Origin: Marinitenerispora sediminis
Lineage (GTDB): Bacteria > Actinomycetota > Actinomycetes > Streptosporangiales > Streptosporangiaceae
Length of the DNA: 37,710 nucleotides
Direction of reading: 5' to 3'
NCBI RefSeq assembly: GCF_003336425.1
Contig: NZ_QEIO01000045.1
Location: forward strand, 1-37,710
Numbering within the stretch: position 1 is the first letter of the stretch; each line of letters begins with the position of its first letter. The notes below the pieces were generated by a model that did no database searches, had not been told where the DNA came from, and saw only the letters and a list, made by a program, of their open reading frames with translations. Below are positions 12,224-29,573 of the stretch, in pieces. The position numbers were made by a program, and so were the translations under genes.

Positions 12224-14050
12224 CTACTCCCCGTGCCACGTGCGCCACAGCGCCGCGTACGTGCCGCCCTCGGCCAGCAGGTCGTCGTGCGTCCCCAGTT
12301 CCGTGACGCGCCCGTCCTCCACCACCGCGATGCGGTCGGCGTCGCAGGCCGTCTGCAGCCGGTGCGCGATCGCGATGACCGTGCGGTCGGCGAGGACCGC
12401 CGACAGCGACCGCTCCAGGTCGCGGGCCGCGCGGGGGTCGAGGAGGGAGGTCGCCTCGTCGAGGATGAGGACGCGCGGGTCGGCGAGGACCAGGCGGGCG
12501 AGGGCCAGCTGCTGGGACCGGGCCGGGTCGAGGGTGCGGCCGCCGGAGCCGACCTCGGTGTCGAGGCCGTCGGGGAGCTCCCGCACCCAGCCGTCCGCGC
12601 CGACCGCGGTGAGGGCGGCCAGGATCGCCTCCGGGGTGGCGGCGCCCTCGCGGACCATCGCGACGTTGTCGCCCACCGTGCCTTTGAAGACGTGCGCCTC
12701 CTGGGTGACGAGCGCGACTCTGCTGCGCTGCTCCTCGGGGGACAGGCCGGTGAGCGGACGGCCGCCGACCAGGATGGAGCCGGTGCGCGGCGGGTGCACC
12801 CCGGCGATGAGCCGGCCGAGTGTGGACTTGCCGGCGCCGCTCGGGCCGACGATGGCGAGGCGTTCACCGCTCCGCAGTTCGAGGTCGACGTCGCGCACGA
12901 CGTCCTCCTCCGGCCGGTACCCGAAGCTCACTCCGCGCAGCACCACGCTCCCGTCGGCGCTCGTCCGGCCGCCCGCCCGGGCCGGGTCCGCCGGGGCCGC
13001 GGCGGGTGCGGCGGCCGCAGGTTCTCCGGCCCGCGGGCCGGATCCGGCCGTCTCCTCGGCCAGCCGCACGCCGAGCAGCCGGCGCAGCGCCGCGTAGCTC
13101 TGCATGGTGGGATCGACCTGCTCGAACAGCTGCTGGACCGGTCCGACGAGCTGCTGGACGTACAGCGTCGCCGCGGTCACCTCGCCCAGCGAGGCGTGCC
13201 CGTTCATGAGCAGCCAGCCGCCCGTGAGCAGGGTTGCCGCGATGGGCAGGATGTGGCTGATCTCCACGGTCGGGAACCACACGGTGCGCAGCCACAGCAG
13301 GTAGCGCTCCGTGGCGTAGGACCTGGCGATGTCGGCGTCGGTCCGCTGATCGCGCTGCCGTTCCCGGCGCAGCGCCTCGACGGTGTGCGCGCCCTCGACC
13401 GTGTCGCTGAGACCCTGCAGCATGGTGCTGTAGCTGGCGAGGTCGGCGACGTAGCCCTGCGGCGCGCGGCGCAGGTACCAGCGGGTGCCCGCCCACAGGA
13501 GCGGCAGCGCGGTGAGCGCCGGCAGCACCAGGAGCGGGTTGACCAGCGCGATGCCGACGGCGGTGAGCAGGAAGGTCACGAGGGAGATCGCGATCTCCGG
13601 CAGCCCCTCCCGCACCGTCGAGGACAGGTGGTCGATGTCCCGGCCCGTGCGCGCGACGAGATCGCCGGTGCCGGCGCGCTCGACGGTGGCCAGGCGCAGC
13701 CGCAGCACCCGGTCGATGAAGTCCTCGCGCAGCTCGGCCAGCACCCGCTCGCCGAGCCGGATCGACGCGGTCACCGACAGGTAGCTCAGCAGGGCGTGCA
13801 GCAGTAGGCACCCGGCGATGCCCGCCGTGGCGAGATCGATCCGACCGGTGCTGCCGGTGCCGCCGACCACGTCGTCCACGACCGTCCCGAGCAGCCACGG
13901 GGCGGCCAGACCGGCGGTCGAGGCGGCACCGTGCAGCACCAGGACCCCCAGCGCCGGCCGGCGGTGGCGGGCCAGTGTGGCGCGGGCGAACGCCCGGACC
14001 TCGCGCCCGTCGGCGACGGGAAGTCCGCGCGTGGGCGTCTCGACGGTCAT
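12224..14050 (-). CDS. ABC exporter half-transporter, subunit with the catalytic Walker motifs
   Basis: Type IV ABC exporter half of 608 residues: an N-terminal six-helix membrane domain (about residues 30-320) and a C-terminal nucleotide-binding domain. Walker A GPSGAGKST is intact (K408), Walker B VLILDEATS and the switch histidine in IAHR are intact. The signature motif is degenerate: LDPARSQQ (507-514) in place of LSGGQ. This is complementary to the upstream partner, so the pair should make one working and one dead ATP site, as in TM287/288 or TmrAB. ATG 14050 has GAGGAG upstream; a GTG directly before it is too close to that site. Substrate unknown; such pairs export lipids, peptides or drugs. 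It is second in a two-gene operon. Confidence 0.93.
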   Translation of the reverse strand: MTVETPTRGLPVADGREVRAFARATLARHRRPALGVLVLHGAASTAGLAAPWLLGTVVDDVVGGTGSTGRIDLATAGIAGCLLLHALLSYLSVTASIRLGERVLAELREDFIDRVLRLRLATVERAGTGDLVARTGRDIDHLSSTVREGLPEIAISLVTFLLTAVGIALVNPLLVLPALTALPLLWAGTRWYLRRAPQGYVADLASYSTMLQGLSDTVEGAHTVEALRRERQRDQRTDADIARSYATERYLLWLRTVWFPTVEISHILPIAATLLTGGWLLMNGHASLGEVTAATLYVQQLVGPVQQLFEQVDPTMQSYAALRRLLGVRLAEETAGSGPRAGEPAAAAPAAAPADPARAGGRTSADGSVVLRGVSFGYRPEEDVVRDVDLELRSGERLAIVGPSGAGKSTLGRLIAGVHPPRTGSILVGGRPLTGLSPEEQRSRVALVTQEAHVFKGTVGDNVAMVREGAATPEAILAALTAVGADGWVRELPDGLDTEVGSGGRTLDPARSQQLALARLVLADPRVLILDEATSLLDPRAARDLERSLSAVLADRTVIAIAHRLQTACDADRIAVVEDGRVTELGTHDDLLAEGGTYAALWRTWHGE

Positions 14051-14163
14051 CACAACTCCTCGCGTGCGATCCCCCGGCCCCCACCGGGCGGGGTGCGGCG
14101 GTCCTCGATCGGGGCCGGGGCGGGCAGGTGCGCTCGTGGAGTGCGCCGGGGCGGGGGCCGTTC

Positions 14164-14249: not shown

Positions 14250-16007
14250 TCATGCGCCGTCCCCGCGCCGGACCGTGCGGGCGTAGCCGGGATCGTCGCG
14301 CAGCAGCTCCCGGTGGCCTCCCTCGGCCATCAGGCGGCCGTCGGCGACGTGGCAGACCCGGTCGGCGCGGTCCAGCAGCAGCGGGCTCGTGGTCACCAGC
14401 ACGGTGGTGCGCCCGGACCGGTACTTGGCGAGTCGTTCGCCGATGGCCGCCTCGGTGTGGGCGTCCACGGCGGAGGTCGGTTCCACCAGGATCAGCACCT
14501 CGGGCTCCACCAGCAGCGCCCGCGCGAGCTTGAGCCGCTGCTGCTGCCCGCCGGAGAACTCCCGGCCGCGGTCGGTGACCAGGCCGTCGAGCCCGCCCGG
14601 CAGCGCGGCCACGATGTCGGTGGCGCTCGCGGCGTGCAGCGCCGCCGCCAGCCGCTCGTCGGAGGCACCGTCCGGGGCGAGTTCGCTCCGCAGCGGTCCG
14701 GGGAACAGCCAGGCGTCATTGTCGCTCACCAGGATCCGGCCGCGCACCTCCGCCAGCGCCATGTCGGGCAGGGCGACCACGTCCGCGGTGTCCGCCCGGG
14801 CGGGCTCGGGCGCCGCGGAGGGCACCGCGCCGAACAGCACCGGCGGGTCGCTGTCGCGCAGCCGGGCGAGGCGCTCGGCGAGGGCGGTGCCGTCGGCCGG
14901 CCGGGCGCACGCGACCGCCGTGAGCGCGCCCGGCCGCACTGTCACGCCGCTCACCGGGTCGTACAGCGCGCCGCCCGGTGCGGGGCCGGGGACCGGAGCG
15001 GCGGGGTCGGTGACATCGCGCCGAAGGGAGAGCACGCGCACGATCCGGGTCGCGGCGACGTGCCCGGCGACCGCCACCCCGAGGACGGCGGTCAGCGACT
15101 GCACCGGCACGACGAGGTAGGCGGCGTACCCGTAGAAGGCCACCAGCTGGCCGGTCGTGATCTCGCCGGCGAGCGCCGCACGGGCGCCGAACCACACCAC
15201 GGCCGCGACCAGCAGGCCCGGCAGCAGGACCTCGGCGGCGCGCAGCAGCGCGTCGAACCGGCCGACGCGGACCCCGGCCCGGCGGGTCTCCTGCGAGGCG
15301 GCCCGGTAGCGCCGGGCGAACATCCGCTCGCCGCCGATTCCGCGCAGGACCCGCAGCCCCGCCACGATGTCCCCCGCCTGGTCGGCGAGTTCGGCCAGGC
15401 GCTCGCGGTGCGTGGTGGTGCGGCGGTGGTACGGGCGGATCAGCGGCCCCAGGGCCAGGACGATGGCCGGTACGCCGATGACCACCAGCAGCCCCAGTGT
15501 GAGGGAGGACGAGAGCAGGTAGACGCTGATCCCGGCCACGGTCACGAGCGAGCCGACCAGCATTCCGGTGTACTCGGTGAGCTCGCCCAGCTCCTCGATG
15601 TCGGAGGACCCGACCGACACGACCTCGCCAGAGGAGACCCGGCGCCGCAGGGTGACCCCGAGCCGGCCGGCCCGCCGGGCGACGACCTGCATCGTGCGGT
15701 ACGCGGCGTGGAACCAGTTGTAGACGTCGGCGCGGTGCGCGGCCGCGGCCAGTACCGCCTGCACCGTACCGGTGCCGAGCAGCACCGCCACCCACATGAG
15801 CAGCGCCCGCGGGTCGCGCTCCGTCAGCCCGGCGTCGATGACGCGCCCGATGATGGCGGGCGGCAGCGCCTGCACTCCCATGAACAGGGTGCTCATGGCG
15901 CTGGCCAGGACGAGCGACGGCCACTGCCGGCGCGCCGTCCAGGCCACGTAGCGCCACGGCGAGCGGTGGTCCGGCATGCCGGGCTCGGGGGCTGGGATGG
16001 GATACAT
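14250..16007 (-). CDS. ABC exporter half-transporter, subunit with degenerate ATP site
   Basis: Half-transporter of 585 residues with an N-terminal exporter membrane domain (about 25-310) and a C-terminal nucleotide-binding domain. The P-loop is lost: in the position of GxxGxGKST the sequence reads ACARPADGT, with D372 where the lysine should be. Walker B is LILVEPTS, with V508 in place of Asp while E509 remains, and the switch histidine is T540. The signature FSGGQQQR is intact (S485-Q488). This subunit therefore supplies its signature to the partner's Walker motifs. Start ATG 16007 has no clear ribosome-binding site; TAGTGT (16017-16022, minus strand) nine bases before it may be the -10 box of a leaderless promoter. 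First gene of the pair. Confidence 0.92.
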   Translation of the reverse strand: MYPIPAPEPGMPDHRSPWRYVAWTARRQWPSLVLASAMSTLFMGVQALPPAIIGRVIDAGLTERDPRALLMWVAVLLGTGTVQAVLAAAAHRADVYNWFHAAYRTMQVVARRAGRLGVTLRRRVSSGEVVSVGSSDIEELGELTEYTGMLVGSLVTVAGISVYLLSSSLTLGLLVVIGVPAIVLALGPLIRPYHRRTTTHRERLAELADQAGDIVAGLRVLRGIGGERMFARRYRAASQETRRAGVRVGRFDALLRAAEVLLPGLLVAAVVWFGARAALAGEITTGQLVAFYGYAAYLVVPVQSLTAVLGVAVAGHVAATRIVRVLSLRRDVTDPAAPVPGPAPGGALYDPVSGVTVRPGALTAVACARPADGTALAERLARLRDSDPPVLFGAVPSAAPEPARADTADVVALPDMALAEVRGRILVSDNDAWLFPGPLRSELAPDGASDERLAAALHAASATDIVAALPGGLDGLVTDRGREFSGGQQQRLKLARALLVEPEVLILVEPTSAVDAHTEAAIGERLAKYRSGRTTVLVTTSPLLLDRADRVCHVADGRLMAEGGHRELLRDDPGYARTVRRGDGA

Positions 16008-16967: not shown

Positions 16968-17630
16968 GTGCTCGCGATCGACGACCACATGAAGGAGCTA
17001 CTGGCGATCCCGGGTGCGCGCAGCGTGTCCCTCGTGGACCACACCAACGACCGCGTCATGGCCCGGCGCGGCCACGACCCCGCGGCGGTGCCGGGCGAGG
17101 CCGCGGGCACGGCGGCCGTCATCCGCGTGATCCTCGAAACCGAGCCGTTCGCCCACCGCGGTCGCGAGGCCGACCTGGAGGACGTCGTGCTCACCACCCG
17201 CTCCGGCTACGTCCTGGTCGCGGTCGTCCGCGGGAGTCCGGGGCCGAGGACCCGCTGCCACATCCAACTGCGGCTCGACCGGACCACCGGCAACCTCGCG
17301 CTCGCCCGGCGGGCGATCAGGCGGCTCGCCCGGCGGCTCGCCGCGGAGTCCACCGCCGAGCTCCTCGCGCTCGGACGCGCCCCCTCGGTCCCCATGCAGC
17401 GCCGCCGCGGCCACGGGCCGGACACGGGCGGCGCGCCGAGCACCCGCACCACCGCCGGGCTGCCGGTGCGGCAGCGCGACCCGGACCGCCCCGCGCGGGG
17501 GGCGGACGGCGTCAGGTGGACGCCGCCGGACCGCGCCACGCTGGAGCGCGTGCTGGGCGCCCTCCGGGGGCTGTACGCCTCTTCGCCGCGGGCCGGCGTC
17601 TCCGTCCTGCAGGCGGGGGTCGGGTCCTGA
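16968..17630 (+). CDS. Roadblock/LC7-type protein with a C-terminal extension
   Basis: Protein of 220 residues. Residues 1-125 parallel the whole of the next gene product at matching positions: SVSLVDHTNDRVMA versus ASLVDYGSGMALG, DLEDVVLTTRSGYVL versus SIEDILITLANQYHL, and LRLDRTTGNLALARRAIRRL versus LALDRHRSNLALARHRLRGI. The pair are thus divergent tandem paralogues. The fold pattern is that of Roadblock/LC7 (MglB-like) dimers, which regulate small Ras-like GTPases. Residues 130-220 form a P/R-rich linker and a short helix (RATLERVLGALRGLYAS). GTG 16968 has AAGGA upstream. No GTPase, DUF742 or sensor kinase gene (the actinomycete conservon set) is in view. The partner is unknown. Confidence 0.75.
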   Translation: MLAIDDHMKELLAIPGARSVSLVDHTNDRVMARRGHDPAAVPGEAAGTAAVIRVILETEPFAHRGREADLEDVVLTTRSGYVLVAVVRGSPGPRTRCHIQLRLDRTTGNLALARRAIRRLARRLAAESTAELLALGRAPSVPMQRRRGHGPDTGGAPSTRTTAGLPVRQRDPDRPARGADGVRWTPPDRATLERVLGALRGLYASSPRAGVSVLQAGVGS

Positions 17631-17740: not shown

Positions 17741-18112
17741 ATGGCCGACATCGACACCGGGCTGAAAGAGATGATGTCCATCGACGGGGCCATCGGGGCG
17801 TCGCTGGTCGACTACGGCAGCGGCATGGCGCTGGGGTCGCTGGGCACGTCCAAGGACCTCGACCTCATGGTCGCCTCGGCCGGGAACACCGAGGTGGTCC
17901 GCGCGAAGCTGCGCACGATGGACCAGTTGGGCATCAAGGACAGCATCGAGGACATCCTCATCACGCTGGCGAACCAGTACCACCTGATCCGGCCGCTCAC
18001 CAGCCGCAAGGGCAGCGGCCTCTTCCTGTACCTCGCCCTGGACCGCCACCGCTCCAACCTGGCGCTGGCCCGGCACCGGCTGCGGGGGATCGAGGCGACC
18101 CTGGACGTCTAA
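17741..18112 (+). CDS. Roadblock/LC7-type protein
   Basis: Cytoplasmic protein of 123 residues, a single compact domain with alternating helix and strand. GLKEMMSIDGAIGASLVDYG begins it, a hydrophobic strand GLFLYLALD sits near the end, and a closing helix NLALARHRLRGIEATL follows. This matches Roadblock/LC7 proteins such as MglB and the actinomycete conservon B proteins. ATG 17741 is chosen because GGAGGG lies six bases upstream. The frame is open to an ATG at 17630 overlapping the previous stop, but that 37-codon stretch has poor codon use at its end and no family likeness. Cotranscribed with the preceding paralogue; the hairpin at 18125-18164 ends the unit. A hetero- or homodimer with its neighbour is plausible. 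Confidence 0.82.
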   Translation: MADIDTGLKEMMSIDGAIGASLVDYGSGMALGSLGTSKDLDLMVASAGNTEVVRAKLRTMDQLGIKDSIEDILITLANQYHLIRPLTSRKGSGLFLYLALDRHRSNLALARHRLRGIEATLDV

Positions 18113-18473: not shown

Positions 18474-19092
18474 CCCTTCAGCCTTCGGCCCCGGACCAGC
18501 CCTGCTCAGGTAGGCCTTCGCCGAGACCACCGCGCCTACTCCCATACGGACCGGTGCGCGGCTGACGGCTTCCACGGCGGCCGGGACGCGCTGCCGCGGG
18601 GGCGGGGAGGCGTCGCCGAGAACGGTCAGCCCACGGACGAGCGGCCCATGATCCCGTGGCCGGTCGGTTCCCACTGAGCGGCACGCCCGCCAGCAGGACC
18701 GGCCGCTGCCGCACGGTCGCGGATCAGCCCATTGCCCCTCGCGGTCCTCTCCTGGCTGCTACCCCGTGCCACCCGCGCGGTGCTCTTCGCCGGAGGCCGG
18801 CGGAGCGGGAACAGCGGCCCGCTTCGGCGTCCCGGGCCGAGTCGGTGGCGGGCTTCTCTATCACATGGGCGGCGGTTTTCTTGGGCGATGGCCGAAGTCG
18901 GCCACGAGTCGAGTAATCCGCGCTGTTTCCCCGGTACGCAGTCGCGAGCTGCCGTAACAATGATCGTGATCGCAATGTGTGACGACTTCGTCACGTAGCG
19001 GTCGCTGTCCGGACGGCCGGAAACAACATGAGGTGCGACGTGCCGGTAGCTCCAGCTGGGCTCTCCAGGAACGGTGACGCGGGGCCGCCGAC
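18474..19092. other. Intergenic, upstream region of the pseudo-caspase/helicase gene
   Basis: About 620 bp. The first 400 bp are GC-rich with no gene seen. Positions 18890-19030 are less GC-rich, and contain a direct repeat TGATCG TGATCG (18961-18972) and the inverted repeat at 18979-18994. The promoter of the large gene should lie here. Confidence 0.5.
18979..18994. promoter_or_regulatory. Inverted repeat upstream of the pseudo-caspase/helicase gene
   Basis: GTGACGA and TCGTCAC flank a central CT, a perfect 7-2-7 palindrome 98 bp before the start codon of the 1259-residue gene. It is a candidate operator, or a short hairpin in the leader. Confidence 0.5.
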
Positions 19093-22000
19093 ATGAGCAT
19101 CGGCCGCCGCCGGGCGCTGCTGATCGCCGCCACGTCCCACACCGATCCCGTTCTCGCCGACCTGCCGGTGGCGCGTGCCGGGGCGCGGTCGCTGGACGCC
19201 GTGCTGCGCGCACACGGCCGGTTCGACGAGACGACGCTGCTGCTCGACCCCGACCGCGGTCGCGTGCAGGCGGCGGTGCGCTCCTTCCTGGCCGACTCCC
19301 GGCCCGACGACCTCCTGCTGCTCTTCTTCACGGGGTACGGGCTCGTGACCGGGGACGGCCGGCTCTTCCTCGCCGCCCGCGACACGGTGTCCCGGCGCCC
19401 CCGGCGCACCGCTGTCCCCGTCGGCCTGCTCGGCGACCTGCTGCGCGCCGCGCCCACCCCGACCGCCGCGGTGCTGCTCGACTGCCGCCATCGGACCGCC
19501 GGCGACCCCTCGGCGGCCGGCGCCCGGGCGGGATTGCCGGAGGTGGAACTGCGCCGTGAACTCCACGGCGTCGGCGTGGTCGTGTCGGCGGCGGAGCGTG
19601 ATGCCACCACCGGCCGGCCGGACCCGCACCTGCCCGGCCGGCCGGACCCGCTCGGCCACGCGGACTGCGGCGTGCTCACCCTCGCGGCCGCCGCGGCACT
19701 GGCCGGAGCGGCCGAGGACCGCGACGGGGACGGCTGGATCGACGCCCGCGACCTCGTCGAGCACCTGTGTGCCGACCTCGGCCGGATCACCGGCCTGGGG
19801 CAGCCGGTGGCCCTGCGCTTCGGCGAGCACGACGGAGGGGCGGTCCGCCTGGTCCGCGGCCGGGGCGCGGGGGGACCGGAACGCGCCGGGACCGGCGCCC
19901 TCGTCGGCCACCTCGGTCCCGGGCGCGGCCCCAGCGCGCTCCCCGGACCGCCCGACGATGATCCCGCCCTACCCCTGGACGCCGCCCGCTGGCGCGCGCT
20001 GCTCGACTACCACGCGTGCTGCGTCCGCCGGGCGGCGGTGGTCCGGTCCTTCGCCGACCTGGACCGCGCGGGCGGGCATGTCTGCTGGCCGGCCGGTCCC
20101 GAGCCGCTGTTCAGCGGCGCCGACCCGCGGCCGGCGCTGGGGAGCGCCGCCGCCGACCTCGTCCGGGCGGCGGTGGAACGCGGCGAGACCGTCCGCTACG
20201 GATACCCCACGGTGCTGCTGGACCCGGCCGACCTGCCGGGGCTGCCCGATGCGGAGCTCCCGGCCGCCGGCCTCCTGGCGGCCCCGCTGTTCGTCGTGGA
20301 CGTCGATGCCGACGCGGCCATCACGGGTCCGCGGCTGCGGGCGCTCTCCGCCCCCGTCGTCAACCCCGCGGTGCTGCGCGCGCTCGGCCACCCGGGGCGC
20401 ACCGACTCCGTCGAACTGCGCGAGTGGCTGGCCGACGGAGCGGACGGCCCCGTGATAGCCGACCTCGCGTGCCGGACCCGGCGGCTGCTCGACGATCTCG
20501 GGATCGAGCCCGTCGACACGATCGACCCCGCGCGCCTGCGGGGCGGACTCGCCCGGTTGCCGCCCCGGCCCGGGGCCCGCAACGTCGCCCTGCTCTACCG
20601 TGCGGCGCCGCCGGCGGTCGCCGTCTCCGGTGTCCTCGCCGACCTGGCCTGCGACGAGGAGACGGGGCTTCGGGTGCAGCGCATCGGCGACACCGCGCTG
20701 GCCGCCCTCGCCGGTCCGCGCCCGGGGGGCGCCGACCCCGGAGCGCCCGTCGACACCCGCGGGCTCGGCGAGCCGCAGCGCGACGCGCTGCGGTCAGCGA
20801 TGGCCGAAACCCTCACCGTGGTCGCCGGTCCGCCCGGCACCGCGGTGACCGGCCTGGCCGCGGCCGCCGTGCAGTCCGCCGTCGTCGCGGGGCAGAGCGT
20901 GCTCGTCGCCGCCCCGGACGCCTCGACCGTCGAGAGCGTCGCCCGCTCCGCCGACGTCGACGCGCGTCCGCTCGTGGTGCGCACCGGCGGGCCGCGGTAC
21001 CGCGCCGCCGAGCCGCAGGTGCTCGCCGAACTCCTCGGACGCGAGCACGGCGGCGGCGATCCGGCGGTGCGCTACGCCAGCCTCCGCGAGGACTGGACCA
21101 GCTTGCGCACGGCCGAGCGGACCGTCGACGCGGTTGCCGCCCAGGAGCACGAACTCGCGCTGCTCGCGCGGGCGCGGTCCCGGCTGGCCGCCGCCGGATG
21201 GGATCCCGCGGCCGTGTTCGGCTCCACCCGGCGCTCTCCCGAGGAGTGGGCTCGCCGGGCCGGGCGCGCGTTCGGCCGCGGCGTGGCGGGCGCCCTGCGG
21301 CGCGCGGCCATCCGCCGCGGACTGGGCGTGCCGGCCGACCCGGCGAGTCTGGCGATGCTCGGCCGCGCCGCCCGCGCGGAGCACGACTGGCGGACGGCGA
21401 TGGACCGCTGGCGCCGCAGCGCGGTGCCCGCGGATCCCGCCGCCAACCTCGACGCCGCCGCCGGCTGCCACCGGCTGTCCAGCCTGGACTGCCTGAAGGC
21501 CGCGGTGGCCAGCAGGATCGAGGGCGGCCGGCAGGCCATCGCCAACCGGCTGCACAGCCTGAACTGGCACGGGGCGAGGAGCTGGGCCGGGTTCCCGTGG
21601 CTGCTGACAGCCGTCCCTGCGTGGGCGACCACCACCGCAGGGGCCCGAGCCCTCCCACCGGAGGCCGGGCTGTTCGACCTGGTCGTCCTGGTGGACGCCG
21701 GAAACTGCCCGGTGGCCGAGGCGCTGCCGCTGCTGTACCGGGCCAAGCGCGCGCTGGTCGTCGGCGATCCGCGCCGGGGGACGTCGCCAGCCGGCCCCGA
21801 ACCCGAGGAAGAACTGCGGTACCGCCAGGCCGCCCGGCTCGGCGAGCGCTGGCTGACCGAGCGGGCGCTGCGCGGTACCGGCGACTCCGGTTACCACGCC
21901 TGCGCCGCCGCCCTGGCCGCCACCGGGCGGCCCGTGCTGTGGCTGGACGAGCACGACGGCCGGCACCCCCGGCTCGCCGCGCTCGCCGACCGGCACTTCT

Positions 22001-22872
22001 ACGGCGGGCGCTCCACCGCCCCGGCCGCTCGCACCCACCACCCGGCCCCGCGCGGCCGGGTGGTGGAGTGGCGCGATGTCGTGGGCGGCTGCGCGCGCAC
22101 CGTCGGCCGGTCCTGCGTCAACCCGGAAGAGGCCCATGAGGTCGCCGCGGCGGTGCGGGCCCTCGACGCCGCTCTGCCGGCCGGTGCCGCCATCGGTGTG
22201 GTGGCGCCGTACCGTTCGCAGCGGACGCTGCTGAGCCGGCTCGTCGAGCACGCGGGCCGCCGCCGGGAGGTCCGGGTGGGCGCGGCCGAGGCGTTCCGCG
22301 GCGAGTGGGACGTCATGGTGCTCTCGCCCACCATCTGCGCCGGCGCGCCGGCCGACCTGGCGCGTCGCGCGACCGAGTGCGCCGACGCGTGGCACGCCGT
22401 GCTCACGCGGGCGAGCCGGCGGGTGGTCGTGGTGGGCGACGCCGCGTTCTGGTCGGCGTGCGGGGGCCTGCCCGCCGAACTCTGCGCCGAGGGGCTGATC
22501 GGCGGGACCGCTCCCGGCCGGGGAGCGGTGGCCGGCGCACCGGCCTGGCCGCCGGCCGACCGCGGGGCCGCCCGGCGGCGGCGCGATCCCGCACGGCAGT
22601 CGCTGCTGGACGCGCTGCGCAGCATGTCCGACGAGGTGACGGAGGACGTGTCGGCGGGCGGCCACCACGCCGACCTTCGGGTGCGCACCCCGCACGGGAC
22701 CACGCTGGTCGTGGTGGACCGGTCCGGCTCCGGCCGCGAACTCCGCCGGCTGCTCGGCCGGTGCGTCCAGCTCCACCGGTCGGCGGGCGAGCCCGTCGTC
22801 CGCGCCCCCGCCTGGCGCTGCCTGCACGATCCGGACGGTATGGCCAAGGAGATCCTGAACGCGGGCGCGTGA
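19093..22872 (+). CDS. Pseudo-caspase / SF1 pseudo-helicase / Vsr-like fusion protein
   Basis: Protein of 1259 residues. Residues 5-165 match caspase-like (peptidase C14, EACC1-type) domains: RRALLIAATSHTDP, then DDLLLLFFTGYGLV and AVLLDCRHRTAG. The family pattern is SGHG and DCCxSG; here Y82 replaces the catalytic His and R132 the catalytic Cys. Residues about 320-1130 follow DNA2/NAM7-type SF1 helicases (AAA_11/AAA_12): QRDALRSAM, P-loop GPPGTAVTG with V585 for the lysine, FDLVVLVDAGNC with A869 for the Walker B Glu, VVGDPRRG with R895 for the motif III Gln, VVAPYRSQ, and FRGE for FQGE. Residues 1170-1259 resemble Vsr/MTES_1575 nucleases, with V1208 and R1210 at the expected acidic positions (tentative). 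Intact frame and normal codon use argue against decay. ATG 19093 lacks a strong ribosome-binding site. Function unknown; relatives with active domains are conflict-system-like. Confidence 0.8.
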   Translation: MSIGRRRALLIAATSHTDPVLADLPVARAGARSLDAVLRAHGRFDETTLLLDPDRGRVQAAVRSFLADSRPDDLLLLFFTGYGLVTGDGRLFLAARDTVSRRPRRTAVPVGLLGDLLRAAPTPTAAVLLDCRHRTAGDPSAAGARAGLPEVELRRELHGVGVVVSAAERDATTGRPDPHLPGRPDPLGHADCGVLTLAAAAALAGAAEDRDGDGWIDARDLVEHLCADLGRITGLGQPVALRFGEHDGGAVRLVRGRGAGGPERAGTGALVGHLGPGRGPSALPGPPDDDPALPLDAARWRALLDYHACCVRRAAVVRSFADLDRAGGHVCWPAGPEPLFSGADPRPALGSAAADLVRAAVERGETVRYGYPTVLLDPADLPGLPDAELPAAGLLAAPLFVVDVDADAAITGPRLRALSAPVVNPAVLRALGHPGRTDSVELREWLADGADGPVIADLACRTRRLLDDLGIEPVDTIDPARLRGGLARLPPRPGARNVALLYRAAPPAVAVSGVLADLACDEETGLRVQRIGDTALAALAGPRPGGADPGAPVDTRGLGEPQRDALRSAMAETLTVVAGPPGTAVTGLAAAAVQSAVVAGQSVLVAAPDASTVESVARSADVDARPLVVRTGGPRYRAAEPQVLAELLGREHGGGDPAVRYASLREDWTSLRTAERTVDAVAAQEHELALLARARSRLAAAGWDPAAVFGSTRRSPEEWARRAGRAFGRGVAGALRRAAIRRGLGVPADPASLAMLGRAARAEHDWRTAMDRWRRSAVPADPAANLDAAAGCHRLSSLDCLKAAVASRIEGGRQAIANRLHSLNWHGARSWAGFPWLLTAVPAWATTTAGARALPPEAGLFDLVVLVDAGNCPVAEALPLLYRAKRALVVGDPRRGTSPAGPEPEEELRYRQAARLGERWLTERALRGTGDSGYHACAAALAATGRPVLWLDEHDGRHPRLAALADRHFYGGRSTAPAARTHHPAPRGRVVEWRDVVGGCARTVGRSCVNPEEAHEVAAAVRALDAALPAGAAIGVVAPYRSQRTLLSRLVEHAGRRREVRVGAAEAFRGEWDVMVLSPTICAGAPADLARRATECADAWHAVLTRASRRVVVVGDAAFWSACGGLPAELCAEGLIGGTAPGRGAVAGAPAWPPADRGAARRRRDPARQSLLDALRSMSDEVTEDVSAGGHHADLRVRTPHGTTLVVVDRSGSGRELRRLLGRCVQLHRSAGEPVVRAPAWRCLHDPDGMAKEILNAGA

Positions 22873-23099
22873 GGCCGTCACGCACCGCGAGTGGGCCCGA
22901 CCGCGGGGGCGGCGGCCGCCGTGACCGCATCGAGCGGCGGGCTGGGGGCCCTGCCGGGGCCGGCGCCGGGTCCGTCCCGGGGGCCGTCACTGCGGGTGCT
23001 GGTCGGAGCCGCCGGAGGCGTTGCGCGCGGGAGCGGCCGCCGTCGCTCGGTGCCGTGCCGGCGCGCCGCGCCCGCTCTGCCACTAGGCCCGGGAGGCCC
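22873..23099. other. Intergenic, nothing seen
   Basis: GC-rich 230 bp between the large fusion gene and the transposase remnant. No gene or clear hairpin recognised. Confidence 0.4.
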
Positions 23100-23640
23100 G
23101 TCTCCGAGCCGCCGGTGTTGCGGGTCGTCGGTCCGATGAAGATCGGCGGGGATGGAGCGCGGATGGAAACCCGTGTGGGCCAGCGCCCGTTCCCCGATGA
23201 CCGGCGCCTCGTGCGTTCCGTAGTTGTCCAGCACTGGATGCACACCAAGCCCAGGCGGTGTCCTCGGTCGATCCGGTTCATGGATTTCCGGAACTCGCCG
23301 TCGCGGTGCTCGCGGTGGTGGGAGGAGATCACCGTGCCCGATGCCATATCCAGGGCCGCGAACAGGGCGGTCGCCTTCAGCCCGGATGTCGTCTCGGCGG
23401 CCCGGCGCCGCGTGCGTCATCGGCAGGACCGGCGCGGGCCGGTTCAGGGCCTGGACACGGGATTCGTCGTCCACGCACAGCACCAGCGCCGTATCGGGGG
23501 ATCCGGGTACCGGCCGGTGACAGCGTGGACCTTCTCGACGAAGAACGGATCCGTGGAGATTTCCATCCATCGACGAGATGCAGTCTGAGTCCGAGGGCAA
23601 CGCCAGCCGCGTGGGATGGCGGTCTGGCTGGGCACGTTCC
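23100..23640 (-). pseudogene. Frameshifted, truncated IS630-type transposase
   Basis: Read on the minus strand, pieces of an IS630-family DDE transposase appear in order but in different frames. They are GVALGLRLHLVDGWK (about 23605-23560), STDPFFVEKVHAVTGRYPDPP in part (23558-23496), LVLCVDDESRVQALNRP and VLPM (to about 23417), ASGTVISSHHREHR with EFRKSMNRID (23345-23270), and HPVLDNYGTHEAP (about 23240-23205). The first and second catalytic Asp (VDDES, LDNYG) remain; the third (Glu, usually in a NxVERWF motif) is lost because the sequence breaks off after HTGFHP. At least three frameshifts plus 3' truncation make it dead. The ends of the element were not identified. Confidence 0.85.
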
Positions 23641-24127
23641 TCGGGGCCCGGATCCGCCATGCGGGGCACCATATTCGGATTGCCATCGAATTAACGACTC
23701 AGAACACTGGATCGTTGATGCGGGTCGGGCTGCGGGGCGGTGGCTGTCGGGGGTCACCGGTCGGTTGTCGGCGGAACGCGGTGTCTGGTCCCCGGACCCG
23801 CTGGTGGGTGCGGGCGGCCGTCCTTCGCTCGTGCGGGCGGCACGGCGGGCCGGGCCCGGCGGGTTCGGCGACGTCCAGAGGGACGCGGCGCTCGCCCCGA
23901 AAAACGCCAGGAGAGATCCGCGCGCACCAGCGGCCGGCGGATCGCGGCTGCCGGGCCGGGATGGGACGCGGCGTGCCCGGCCGCGTGCGGGGCGCGGCGA
24001 AGGGCCGCTGGGAGGTGCGCCGGCTCCGGGCGGGGGCGGCTGGAGGGCAGCCGCCGCCCGCCGTGCCGTGCGCCCGTCCGCGATGGCGGGGCGCGGCGTC
24101 GCGGGGCAGCGCTCGATGGGCCGGGCG
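23641..24127. other. Intergenic, decayed DNA beside the IS remnant
   Basis: About 490 bp. Positions 23665-23725 are clearly AT-richer than the surroundings, with no coding signal, and may be the 5' part or flank of the IS630-type element. GATCGTTGATG at 23710-23720 recurs at 37616-37626. The rest is GC-rich low-complexity sequence without a gene. Confidence 0.4.
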
Positions 24128-28446: not shown

Positions 28447-28691
28447 CAGAACCGGGCAAGATAGACGAGTTTTCTCGCTTCCGGAGACAGGTTTCCGGCG
28501 TCGGCGCACCGCTTCGGAGGGGGACCGCCCTTTCGGTGGAGAACCGGCCCGGTTCGCCGGTTGGCCCCGGATCCGCGCTCCTGGCCGGCGCCGGACCGGC
28601 CGCCCGCTCGACCCGCATCCGCCGATAGAGTTCGGTGCGGCCCGGTGGGCACGAAACACCGCCGCGGCCGGGAAAGCGCGGGGAGGGATCG

Positions 28692-29573
28692 GTGCCCGAG
28701 GGCCACACGCTGCATCGGCTGGCGGCGTACTTCGCCGAGAACTACGGCGGTCGGCGGCTGCGGGTCTCCAGCCCCCAGGGGCGCTTCGCTGACGGCGCAC
28801 GCCTGCTCGACCGGCGTGCGCTCGTCGAGAGCGAGGCGCACGGCAAGCAGCTTTTCCTCGGGTTCGACTCCGGCTCCTGGCTGCGGGTGCACCTCGGCCT
28901 GTACGGCGCGTGGACCTTCGGAGACGCGGCGGGCGAGCGCAGCCTGGGCGCGCCGAGGGCCGAGGGCGCCGGTGAACGCGCGCTGGAGCGGGACGAGGAG
29001 GGCTTCGTCGTGCCGCCCGCGCCGGCCGGCGCGGTGCGCGCCCGCTTCGTCAGCTCCACGGGGTGGGCCGACCTGCGCGGGCCGTCCGCCTGCGTGGTGC
29101 TGACCGCGGCGGAGAAGGAGGCCGCGCAGGCCGCGCTCGGTGACGACCCGCTGCGCGCCGACGCCGACCCCGACCGGCCGTGGCGCACGATCCAGCGCTC
29201 CCGGACCACGATCGCGGCCCTGCTGATGCGCCAGGACGTCATCGCCGGTGTCGGCAACATCTACCGGGCGGAGTCGCTGTTCCGCGCCGGCATCGACCCC
29301 TACCGCCCGGGCCGCGACCTCACCCGCGAGCAGTGGGACGCCCTCTGGGCCGATCTGGCCGGACTGCTGCGGGACGGGGTGCGGGACGGCCGCATCATCA
29401 CCACCCGTCCGGCGGACCGCTCGGACCCCGGCCCGGGGCCGGTGCCGCGTTCGGAGGCGTTCTACGTCTGCTACCGGACCGGCGAGCCCTGCCGGGTGTG
29501 CCAGGCGGAGATCCGCTCCGCCGAGCTGGCGGGCCGGACCCTCTACTGGTGCCCCAAGTGCCAGCCGTCCTGA
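28692..29573 (+). CDS. Fpg/Nei family DNA glycosylase / AP lyase (Nei2-like)
   Basis: Base-excision repair enzyme of 293 residues. After Met removal it begins PEGHTLHRLA, giving the catalytic N-terminal proline and the following glutamate. LRVHLGLYGAW is in the N-terminal beta-sandwich, MRQDVIAGVGNIYRAESLF is the helix-two-turn-helix, and the C-terminal zinc finger is built by C-x5-C-x2-C... and CPKC (CYRTGEPCRVC, YWCPKC). The PEGHTLHR start is typical of actinobacterial Nei2-type enzymes rather than Fpg (PELPEVE). GTG 28692 has GGGAGG upstream. Stands alone, divergent from the fructose operon. Confidence 0.94.
   Translation: MPEGHTLHRLAAYFAENYGGRRLRVSSPQGRFADGARLLDRRALVESEAHGKQLFLGFDSGSWLRVHLGLYGAWTFGDAAGERSLGAPRAEGAGERALERDEEGFVVPPAPAGAVRARFVSSTGWADLRGPSACVVLTAAEKEAAQAALGDDPLRADADPDRPWRTIQRSRTTIAALLMRQDVIAGVGNIYRAESLFRAGIDPYRPGRDLTREQWDALWADLAGLLRDGVRDGRIITTRPADRSDPGPGPVPRSEAFYVCYRTGEPCRVCQAEIRSAELAGRTLYWCPKCQPS

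What the first reader, a model, noticed from the sequence alone, without database searches (positions are those of the whole stretch)
19093..22872. Intact 1259-residue gene for a caspase-like plus SF1 helicase fusion in which both enzymes look dead
Seen: a caspase-like domain has Tyr82 at the usual His (TGYG for SGHG) and Arg132 at the usual Cys (DCRH for DCCxSG or DSCHSG). The helicase P-loop reads GPPGTAVTG (Val585 for Lys), Walker B lacks its Glu (Ala869) and motif III lacks its Gln (Arg895). Known: caspase-like domains fused to NTPases are characteristic of bacterial conflict and programmed-death systems. Inference: since the frame is open over 3.8 kb and codon use is normal, the protein is probably kept as a non-enzymatic scaffold, sensor or decoy, perhaps a regulator of an active paralogue elsewhere in the genome.
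Basis: partly seen in the sequence, partly recalled or inferred. Interest (0 to 1): 0.88.

Follow-up and report, generated by a model that had tools for sequence, protein, structure and literature searches.

The report
Conserved dead caspase–helicase, probably a scaffold
An actinobacterial protein descended from a caspase–helicase of the bacterial self-defence kind appears to have lost both enzyme activities yet its family is still maintained by selection, with its clearest new conservation in a helical arm, so it probably works by binding something rather than by cutting or unwinding.

Summary
The 1259-residue frame is open, and the caspase dyad (Tyr82, Arg132), P-loop Lys (Val585) and motif III Gln (Arg895) are missing. 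One correction: Walker B Asp/Glu align to Val867/Asp868, not Ala869. It is not a lone oddity. Seventeen sequences from at least nine genera form one clade (100/100); 17 of 17 lack the P-loop Lys. Four keep a caspase domain, each without both catalytic residues; 13 have lost it. The clade sits at one chromosomal place and lacks the EACC1-like gene found beside 9 of 9 active caspase-bearing relatives. dN/dS in relatives (0.29–0.41) is close to that of flanking genes (0.25–0.32). Helicase motifs drop from 0.89 to 0.51 mean identity, while a helical insertion rises from 0.30 to 0.50. Most likely a domesticated, non-catalytic scaffold whose helical insertion binds an unknown partner. Ancestry: EACC1-type caspase fused to an Upf1/Mokosh-like SF1 helicase. 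New variant of a known kind.

The parts
19093..22872 (+). Pseudoenzyme gene, 1259 aa
   Evidence: Open frame; clade of 17
19028..19096 (+). 22-codon leader frame whose stop overlaps the gene's start as ATGA; its first 15 bases match a start-site motif shared with caspase-less relatives
   Evidence: regex found at 9 of 13 caspase-less members; pattern once in window, 0 in 100 shuffles (pattern drawn up after seeing the sites). Translation not shown
19093..19872 (+). Inactive EACC1-type caspase domain (residues 1-260)
   Evidence: NF047832 E 2.7e-22 over residues 6-169; model matches MALT1
19336..19338 (+). Tyr82 at the catalytic His position
19486..19488 (+). Arg132 at the catalytic Cys position
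19990..20697 (+). Domain before the motor (residues 300-535)
   Evidence: Alignment and model
20740..22452 (+). Upf1-like SF1 pseudohelicase motor (residues 550-1120)
20845..20847 (+). Val585 at the P-loop Lys position
21073..21597 (+). Helical insertion (residues 661-835), the part whose conservation rose most in the dead clade
21598..21807 (+). Residues 836-905 around motifs II and III: the most conserved stretch of the dead clade (0.58), though less than in active relatives (0.67)
21691..21696 (+). Val867-Asp868 at the Walker B Asp-Glu
21775..21777 (+). Arg895 at motif III Gln
22594..22863 (+). C-terminal alpha-beta domain (residues 1168-1257), topology like a restriction-endonuclease fold, no E/D-x-K seen in dead or active relatives
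   Evidence: Secondary structure of model, alignment; fold assignment is inference
16968..17630 (+). Conserved upstream small gene 1
   Evidence: Also at the locus in G076 (Actinorugispora), G087 and G021; a hit in G065
17741..18112 (+). Conserved upstream small gene 2, paralogue of gene 1 (start inferred)
   Evidence: Also in G076 and G087
28635..29573 (+). Fpg/Nei-type DNA glycosylase, the commonest conserved downstream neighbour
   Evidence: Pfam H2TH and zf-FPG; synteny

Best explanation
The gene is a domesticated pseudoenzyme. Its ancestor was the 3' gene of an EACC1-caspase conflict system whose effector was an Upf1/Mokosh-like SF1 helicase. In an ancestor of this actinobacterial group it lost the EACC1 partner, the protease dyad and the ATPase P-loop and became fixed at one chromosomal place (read from comparison). 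It is kept because it still folds and binds: the helical insertion within RecA domain 1, with the stretch that follows it and the C-terminal domain, forms the working surface, and the other dead parts hold it in place (inferred). The partner, protein or nucleic acid, is unknown; the neighbouring glycosylase and the two small upstream proteins are first candidates (speculation). In most relatives the caspase was dispensable and is gone, which suggests that the helicase half carries the function.
For: One clade, 17 of 17 without P-loop Lys, support 100/100. Four of 4 retained caspases lack both His and Cys, with four different residue pairs. EACC1-like gene beside 9 of 9 active relatives that have a caspase domain, none found at the dead loci. 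Same place: glycosylase downstream on the same strand in 14 of 16 genomes with context. NG86 dN/dS 0.29-0.41 in 7 pairs; in the same three species pairs the dead gene gives 0.31, 0.34, 0.29 and Fpg 0.31, 0.25, 0.29; PLA2 0.32 in one pair. Constraint shift: motifs 0.51 versus 0.89 in active relatives, insertion 0.50 versus 0.30; as strong in 9-13 of 919-930 circular shifts over six choices of rows; 10 of 15 clade-specific near-invariant positions (13 or 14 of 14 rows) fall in 18% of positions, binomial p 5e-5.
Against: No expression, binding or phenotype data. The gene is dispensable: 4 of 6 genomes of genus g31 gave no match to it, three of them with part of the flanking order kept. The window's own copy has no close relative, so its dN/dS could not be measured and it could be at an early stage of decay. 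The one active pair had a lower dN/dS, 0.21. Loss is uneven: Walker B Asp-Glu is intact in 1 of 17 (G087), motif III Gln in 6 of 17, motif VI Arg in 14 of 17. Motifs I and III are still well conserved in the dead set (97th and 94th percentile), and residues 836-905 around motifs II-III are its most conserved region and have the lowest dN/dS in 4 of 6 pairs, so a remaining role near the nucleotide site is possible. Against the five closest active rows the insertion's rise is smaller (0.42 to 0.50). The insertion's borders were set after I had seen the alignment, and the binomial test treats columns as independent.
Confidence: 0.6

Rival explanations
1. Dominant-negative regulator of an active caspase-helicase paralogue.
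For: G021 encodes both forms about 22 kb apart; G062, G064 and G079 encode both.
Against: No paralogue detected in the window's genome. In genus g9 the dead gene is in 6 of 6 genomes and an intact active one in 2 of 6. The helicase half, not the caspase, is what most members retain.
Confidence: 0.08
2. Decoy or nucleic-acid receptor in defence, as proposed for other inactive domains of bacterial conflict systems.
For: Ancestry in a conflict system; PMC7159879 passages propose decoy roles for inactive enzymes and PMC8195603 passages propose nucleic-acid receptor roles for inactive STAND NTPases; patchy loss.
Against: Fixed chromosomal place and dN/dS near that of flanking genes; motifs Ia and V, which contact nucleic acid in SF1 helicases (recalled), are the least kept (percentiles 0 and 35). 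These do not exclude it.
Confidence: 0.2
3. A gene in slow decay, kept open by chance.
For: Domains lost in many members; gene absent in some relatives; the window's copy itself could not be tested.
Against: dN/dS 0.29-0.41 in relatives, 117 invariant columns in 13 members, shared start-site DNA, normal codon pattern.
Confidence: 0.05
4. Still catalytic, or at least nucleotide-binding, with unusual residues.
For: PPGTG is exact in 13 of 17, motif VI Arg kept in 14 of 17, Walker B Asp-Glu in G087; residues 836-905 around motifs II-III are the most conserved region.
Against: The Lys position holds Ala, Val, Leu or Gly across the clade; no replacement residue is conserved there.
Confidence: 0.07

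Closest known systems
EACC1-associated caspase two-gene system (Kaur et al. 2020, PMC7159879; section 33 read, passages)
   Same: N-terminal caspase of the NF047832 type with a variable C-terminal effector
   Different: Catalytic dyad gone, no EACC1-like gene found, fixed chromosomal place; caspase wholly lost in 13 of 17 members
Mokosh MkoA/MkoC helicases (PADLOC models) and Upf1/IGHMBP2/senataxin SF1 helicases
   Same: Motor fold: Upf1 Z 25.0; the active relative L024 matches MkoC at 1.1e-63 and the window protein at 7.7e-13
   Different: P-loop Lys, Walker B and other motifs degenerate; Mokosh operon partners were not looked for
Bacterial pseudo-orthocaspases (PMC6426788, abstract and passages)
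   Same: Caspase p20 without His-Cys; His to Tyr is part of the commonest change there too
   Different: That paper reports 3 of 636 in Actinobacteria and its main text has no 'helicase'; here an SF1 pseudohelicase is fused and Cys is Arg
Pseudohelicases, e.g. Deinococcus PriA and Utp25 (search listing)
   Same: Helicase fold reported as a pseudohelicase
   Different: Different helicase families (recalled); no caspase ancestry

Membership tests
EACC1-caspase conflict system | EACC1-type caspase domain at the N-terminus of the 3' gene | tested here: met
   NF047832 E 2.7e-22, 79 bits, under the 140-bit cut-off
EACC1-caspase conflict system | Catalytic His-Cys | tested here: not met
   Tyr82 and Arg132
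EACC1-caspase conflict system | EACC1 gene directly 5' | tested here: not met
   tblastn (E 1e-3) with four EACC1-like proteins finds none in the window. That these proteins are EACC1 rests on position, on hits beside other EACC1-type caspases and on the published description; no Pfam or NCBIfam model named them
EACC1-caspase conflict system | Variable C-terminal effector | tested here: met
   SF1 helicase part
Upf1-like SF1 helicase | Fold of the helicase core | tested here: met
   Upf1 Z 25.0, rmsd 3.7, 456 aligned; AAA_12 E 1.1e-12
Upf1-like SF1 helicase | P-loop Lys and Walker B Asp-Glu | tested here: not met
   Val585; Val867-Asp868
Upf1-like SF1 helicase | ATP-driven unwinding | not testable with these tools
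   Needs purified protein
Restriction-endonuclease fold, C-terminal domain | Alpha-beta topology and E/D-x-K catalytic residues | tested here: inconclusive
Mokosh | MkoA/MkoC-like helicase model | tested here: inconclusive
   Partial match of residues 945-1081, E 7.7e-13
Mokosh | Operon partners | not tested
   Not looked for
Pseudo-orthocaspase | Caspase p20 fold without the His-Cys dyad | tested here: met

The most novel reading that the evidence does not exclude
A bacterial cell-death/immune effector has been converted into a vertically inherited, non-catalytic adaptor with a newly evolved binding arm, perhaps coupled to the neighbouring Fpg/Nei DNA glycosylase, a bacterial parallel to animal pseudocaspases such as cFLIP (recalled).
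Probability: 0.3. Interest if true: 0.78.

Novelty: new variant of a known kind. Interest (0 to 1): 0.62.

Why it matters
Inactive enzymes are proposed to be common in bacterial conflict systems (PMC7159879, passages), but what they do is mostly conjecture. Here active cousins, caspase-bearing dead forms and caspase-less dead forms can all be compared, so one can watch constraint leave most catalytic motifs and settle on a helical arm. That makes the question 'what do dead defence enzymes do?' testable: 15 clade-specific near-invariant residues, 10 of them in the arm, tell where to look for the partner.

Tried and rejected
Paralogue in the own genome: searched with the protein, with NF047832 and with PF13087. 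Two other AAA_12 proteins appeared; I read the frame of one (C122; it runs off the contig's start), an SF1 helicase with no caspase part that I could see. The other (C1:85568) I fetched but did not read.

Independent dead case: L084 (genome G125, another family) has a dead P-loop and Tyr for His but keeps the Cys. Joining it to the clade is weakly rejected (AU p 0.04; long branch), so I left it out of the 17.

Whether the window is sister to the caspase-less group is unresolved (72/35 for the other placement; AU p 0.32); the shared start-site DNA favours it.

The leader frame as a relic of EACC1: only position and the ATGA overlap fit; no sequence case.

C-terminal nuclease as a third dead enzyme: the active relatives also lack E/D-x-K, so any loss is older.

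dN/dS controls: 4 of 8 planned neighbour pairs were computed; the script stopped on an ambiguous base. YN00 gave values for 5 of 7 dead pairs (0.08-0.14) and failed for 2; NG86 for the one active pair was 0.21, YN00 0.12, one member being split.

EACC1 check: 2 further relatives with an intact P-loop, L008 and L088, have no caspase part and gave no EACC1-like hit; they are outside the '9 of 9'. Upstream sequence held at the dead loci varies (about 450 bases in some contigs), so a more distant EACC1 gene is not excluded there.

Left out before counts: the tree dropped L081 (same gene as L034) and L044 (split). One search used 13 dead rows and 8 active; one search used 14 or 9 dead and 8, 5 or 6 active rows.

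Literature: searches listed no paper that I recognised as describing this fusion as inactive; I read abstracts, passages or one section of three papers only, and only CC-licensed PMC is held.

Full report
What is there. Window 19093-22872 (+) encodes a 1259-aa protein with an N-terminal EACC1-type caspase domain (NF047832, E 2.7e-22, below cut-off), a middle domain, an SF1 helicase part (AAA_12 E 1.1e-12) with a helical insertion at residues 661-835, and a C-terminal alpha-beta domain. AlphaFold2 models are confident for the caspase part (pLDDT 80.5) and for residues 296-1259 (87.2). They match MALT1 (Foldseek E 1.9e-9) and Upf1/IGHMBP2 (Z 25.0 and 24.3). Profile searches of PDB sequences agree: MALT1 at 7.9e-8, senataxin-like and SMUBP-2 helicases at 5.8e-32 and 1.1e-31.

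Is it dead? Against intact relatives, Tyr82 and Arg132 replace the caspase His and Cys, Val585 the P-loop Lys, Val867-Asp868 the Walker B Asp-Glu, Arg895 the motif III Gln. Lack of activity is inferred from sequence, not measured.

A clade, not a single case. A search of 60 relatives, the own genome included, gave matches in 23 of 60 at E<=1e-3, many to the caspase or helicase part alone; a search of 120 with an active homologue gave 20 of 120 at E<=1e-30. Genus searches gave 6 of 6 (g9), 2 of 2 (g22) and 3 of 6 (g31; two of these carry the dead helicase form, the third only a caspase match). The named-genome scan gave six loci, five Nocardiopsis and Actinorugispora endophytica. In a tree of 28 proteins, 17 dead sequences form one group (100/100) and the 13 without a caspase form one group (100/99). 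They come from at least nine genera (g1, g9, g22, g31, g62, g64, g67, g75, g77). All 17 lack the P-loop Lys; Walker B Asp-Glu is intact in 1 (G087), motif III Gln in 6, motif VI Arg in 14, and PPGTG is exact in 13. The four members with a caspase show Tyr/Arg, Gly/His, Arg/Gln and Val/Gly in place of His/Cys.

Place and partner. In 16 genomes with enough context, an Fpg/Nei-type glycosylase lies downstream on the same strand in 14: with no other called or queried gene between in 11, with a pfkB gene or the fructose PTS operon between in 3 (the window, Actinorugispora/G076, G087). It is missing there in 2 (G030, G066). PucR-type regulators, a class III aminotransferase and a phospholipase A2-like gene recur nearby. 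In three genomes of g31 without a match to the gene, aminotransferase and phospholipase genes still frame the place, and the helicase profile finds nothing at E<=1 in the frames between; in the fourth (G067) only the phospholipase gene was found in the stretch. A small EACC1-like gene lies next to 9 of 9 active relatives that have a caspase domain and was found at none of the dead loci. Two further relatives with an intact P-loop but no caspase part (L008, L088) gave no EACC1-like hit. Pfam and NCBIfam models did not name these small proteins, so the name EACC1 rests on position, on hits beside other EACC1-type caspases and on the description in PMC7159879 (section 33).

Selection. NG86 dN/dS for seven dead pairs is 0.31, 0.34, 0.29, 0.35, 0.41, 0.32 and 0.34. 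In the same three Nocardiopsis pairs the dead gene gives 0.31, 0.34, 0.29 and Fpg 0.31, 0.25, 0.29; PLA2 gives 0.32 in one pair. The one active pair gives 0.21. High GC probably biases NG86 upwards in all alike; YN00 gives 0.08-0.14 where it ran. The window's own copy could not be measured.

Shift of constraint. Across the part shared by all, dead and active sets have similar mean pairwise identity (0.46 and 0.44). In the active set all seven helicase motifs lie at the 100th percentile of conservation; in the dead set motif Ia falls to 0, V to 35, II to 54, VI to 58 and IV to 79, while I and III stay at 97 and 94. The helical insertion rises from 0.30 to 0.50 (0.42 to 0.50 against the five closest active rows, whose overall mean is higher, 0.58 versus 0.47); 9-13 of 919-930 circular shifts give as large a contrast across six choices of rows. 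The C-terminal domain goes from 0.38 to 0.48. Ten of 15 dead-specific near-invariant positions lie in the insertion, 175 of 962 positions (binomial 5e-5). Regional dN/dS in the insertion is 0.04-0.34 in six pairs: lowest of six regions in 2, second lowest in 3, fourth in 1. Residues 836-905, around motifs II and III, have the lowest dN/dS in the other 4 pairs and are the most conserved region of the dead set (0.58; 0.67 in active relatives). So the insertion shows the largest gain, but it is not the only constrained part. This is the main positive evidence that the protein has a function and that the function is not simply the ancestral one.

How the caspase may have gone. A start-site motif is found by regex at 9 of 13 caspase-less members, where it opens the protein in frame, and not at the three other caspase-bearing loci. 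It occurs once in the window, at 19028, 65 bases before the gene's start, in a 22-codon frame that ends in an ATGA overlap with that start. A deletion between this leader and the linker would give today's caspase-less proteins; this is inference.

Mechanism. I propose a binding scaffold whose working surface is the helical insertion (the place of domain 1C or 'prong' in Upf1-like helicases, recalled) with residues 836-905 and the C-terminal domain. Shown by comparison: inactivation signatures, common ancestry, fixed place, constraint and its shift. Inferred: lack of activity in vitro, binding, partner. A defence decoy or receptor, as proposed for other inactive domains (PMC7159879 passages; PMC8195603 passages), is not excluded.

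Novelty. Dead caspases (PMC6426788, abstract and passages), pseudohelicases (listing) and inactive effector domains in conflict systems are known. A clade-wide doubly dead caspase-helicase, fixed in place and with relocated constraint, I did not find in searches.

Noticed in passing
window 14250-16007 (-): ABC exporter half with ABC signature (SGGQQQRL) but no Walker A that I could see; Pfam ABC_tran matches only profile positions 56-137. Its neighbour 12224-14053 (-) matches the full domain, so this looks like a heterodimer with one degenerate ATP site.
   Followed up: partly
window 16968-17630 and 17741-18112 (+): Two paralogous small proteins (29% identical over 158 aa by tblastn) conserved upstream of the dead gene in G076 (Actinorugispora) and G087, one in G021 and G065; no Pfam match. 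They look roadblock/LC7-like to me (recalled).
   Followed up: partly
window 22878-23672 (-): Frame that reads like a decayed IS630-type transposase (recalled) directly downstream of the gene; no Pfam match.
   Followed up: partly
upstream of dead genes, window about 18955-18990: Short DNA elements (ACAATG, and AGTGAC-like) recur upstream of the start in several lineages; possible shared promoter.
   Followed up: no
L084 (G125, another family): Apparently independent dead caspase-helicase with P-loop PPGTGAD and Tyr for His but Cys kept.
   Followed up: partly
L026 (G008) and L044/L046 (G060): Active-type relatives reduced to a 219-aa piece or split into two frames while the dead gene in the same genomes stays open.
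   Followed up: partly
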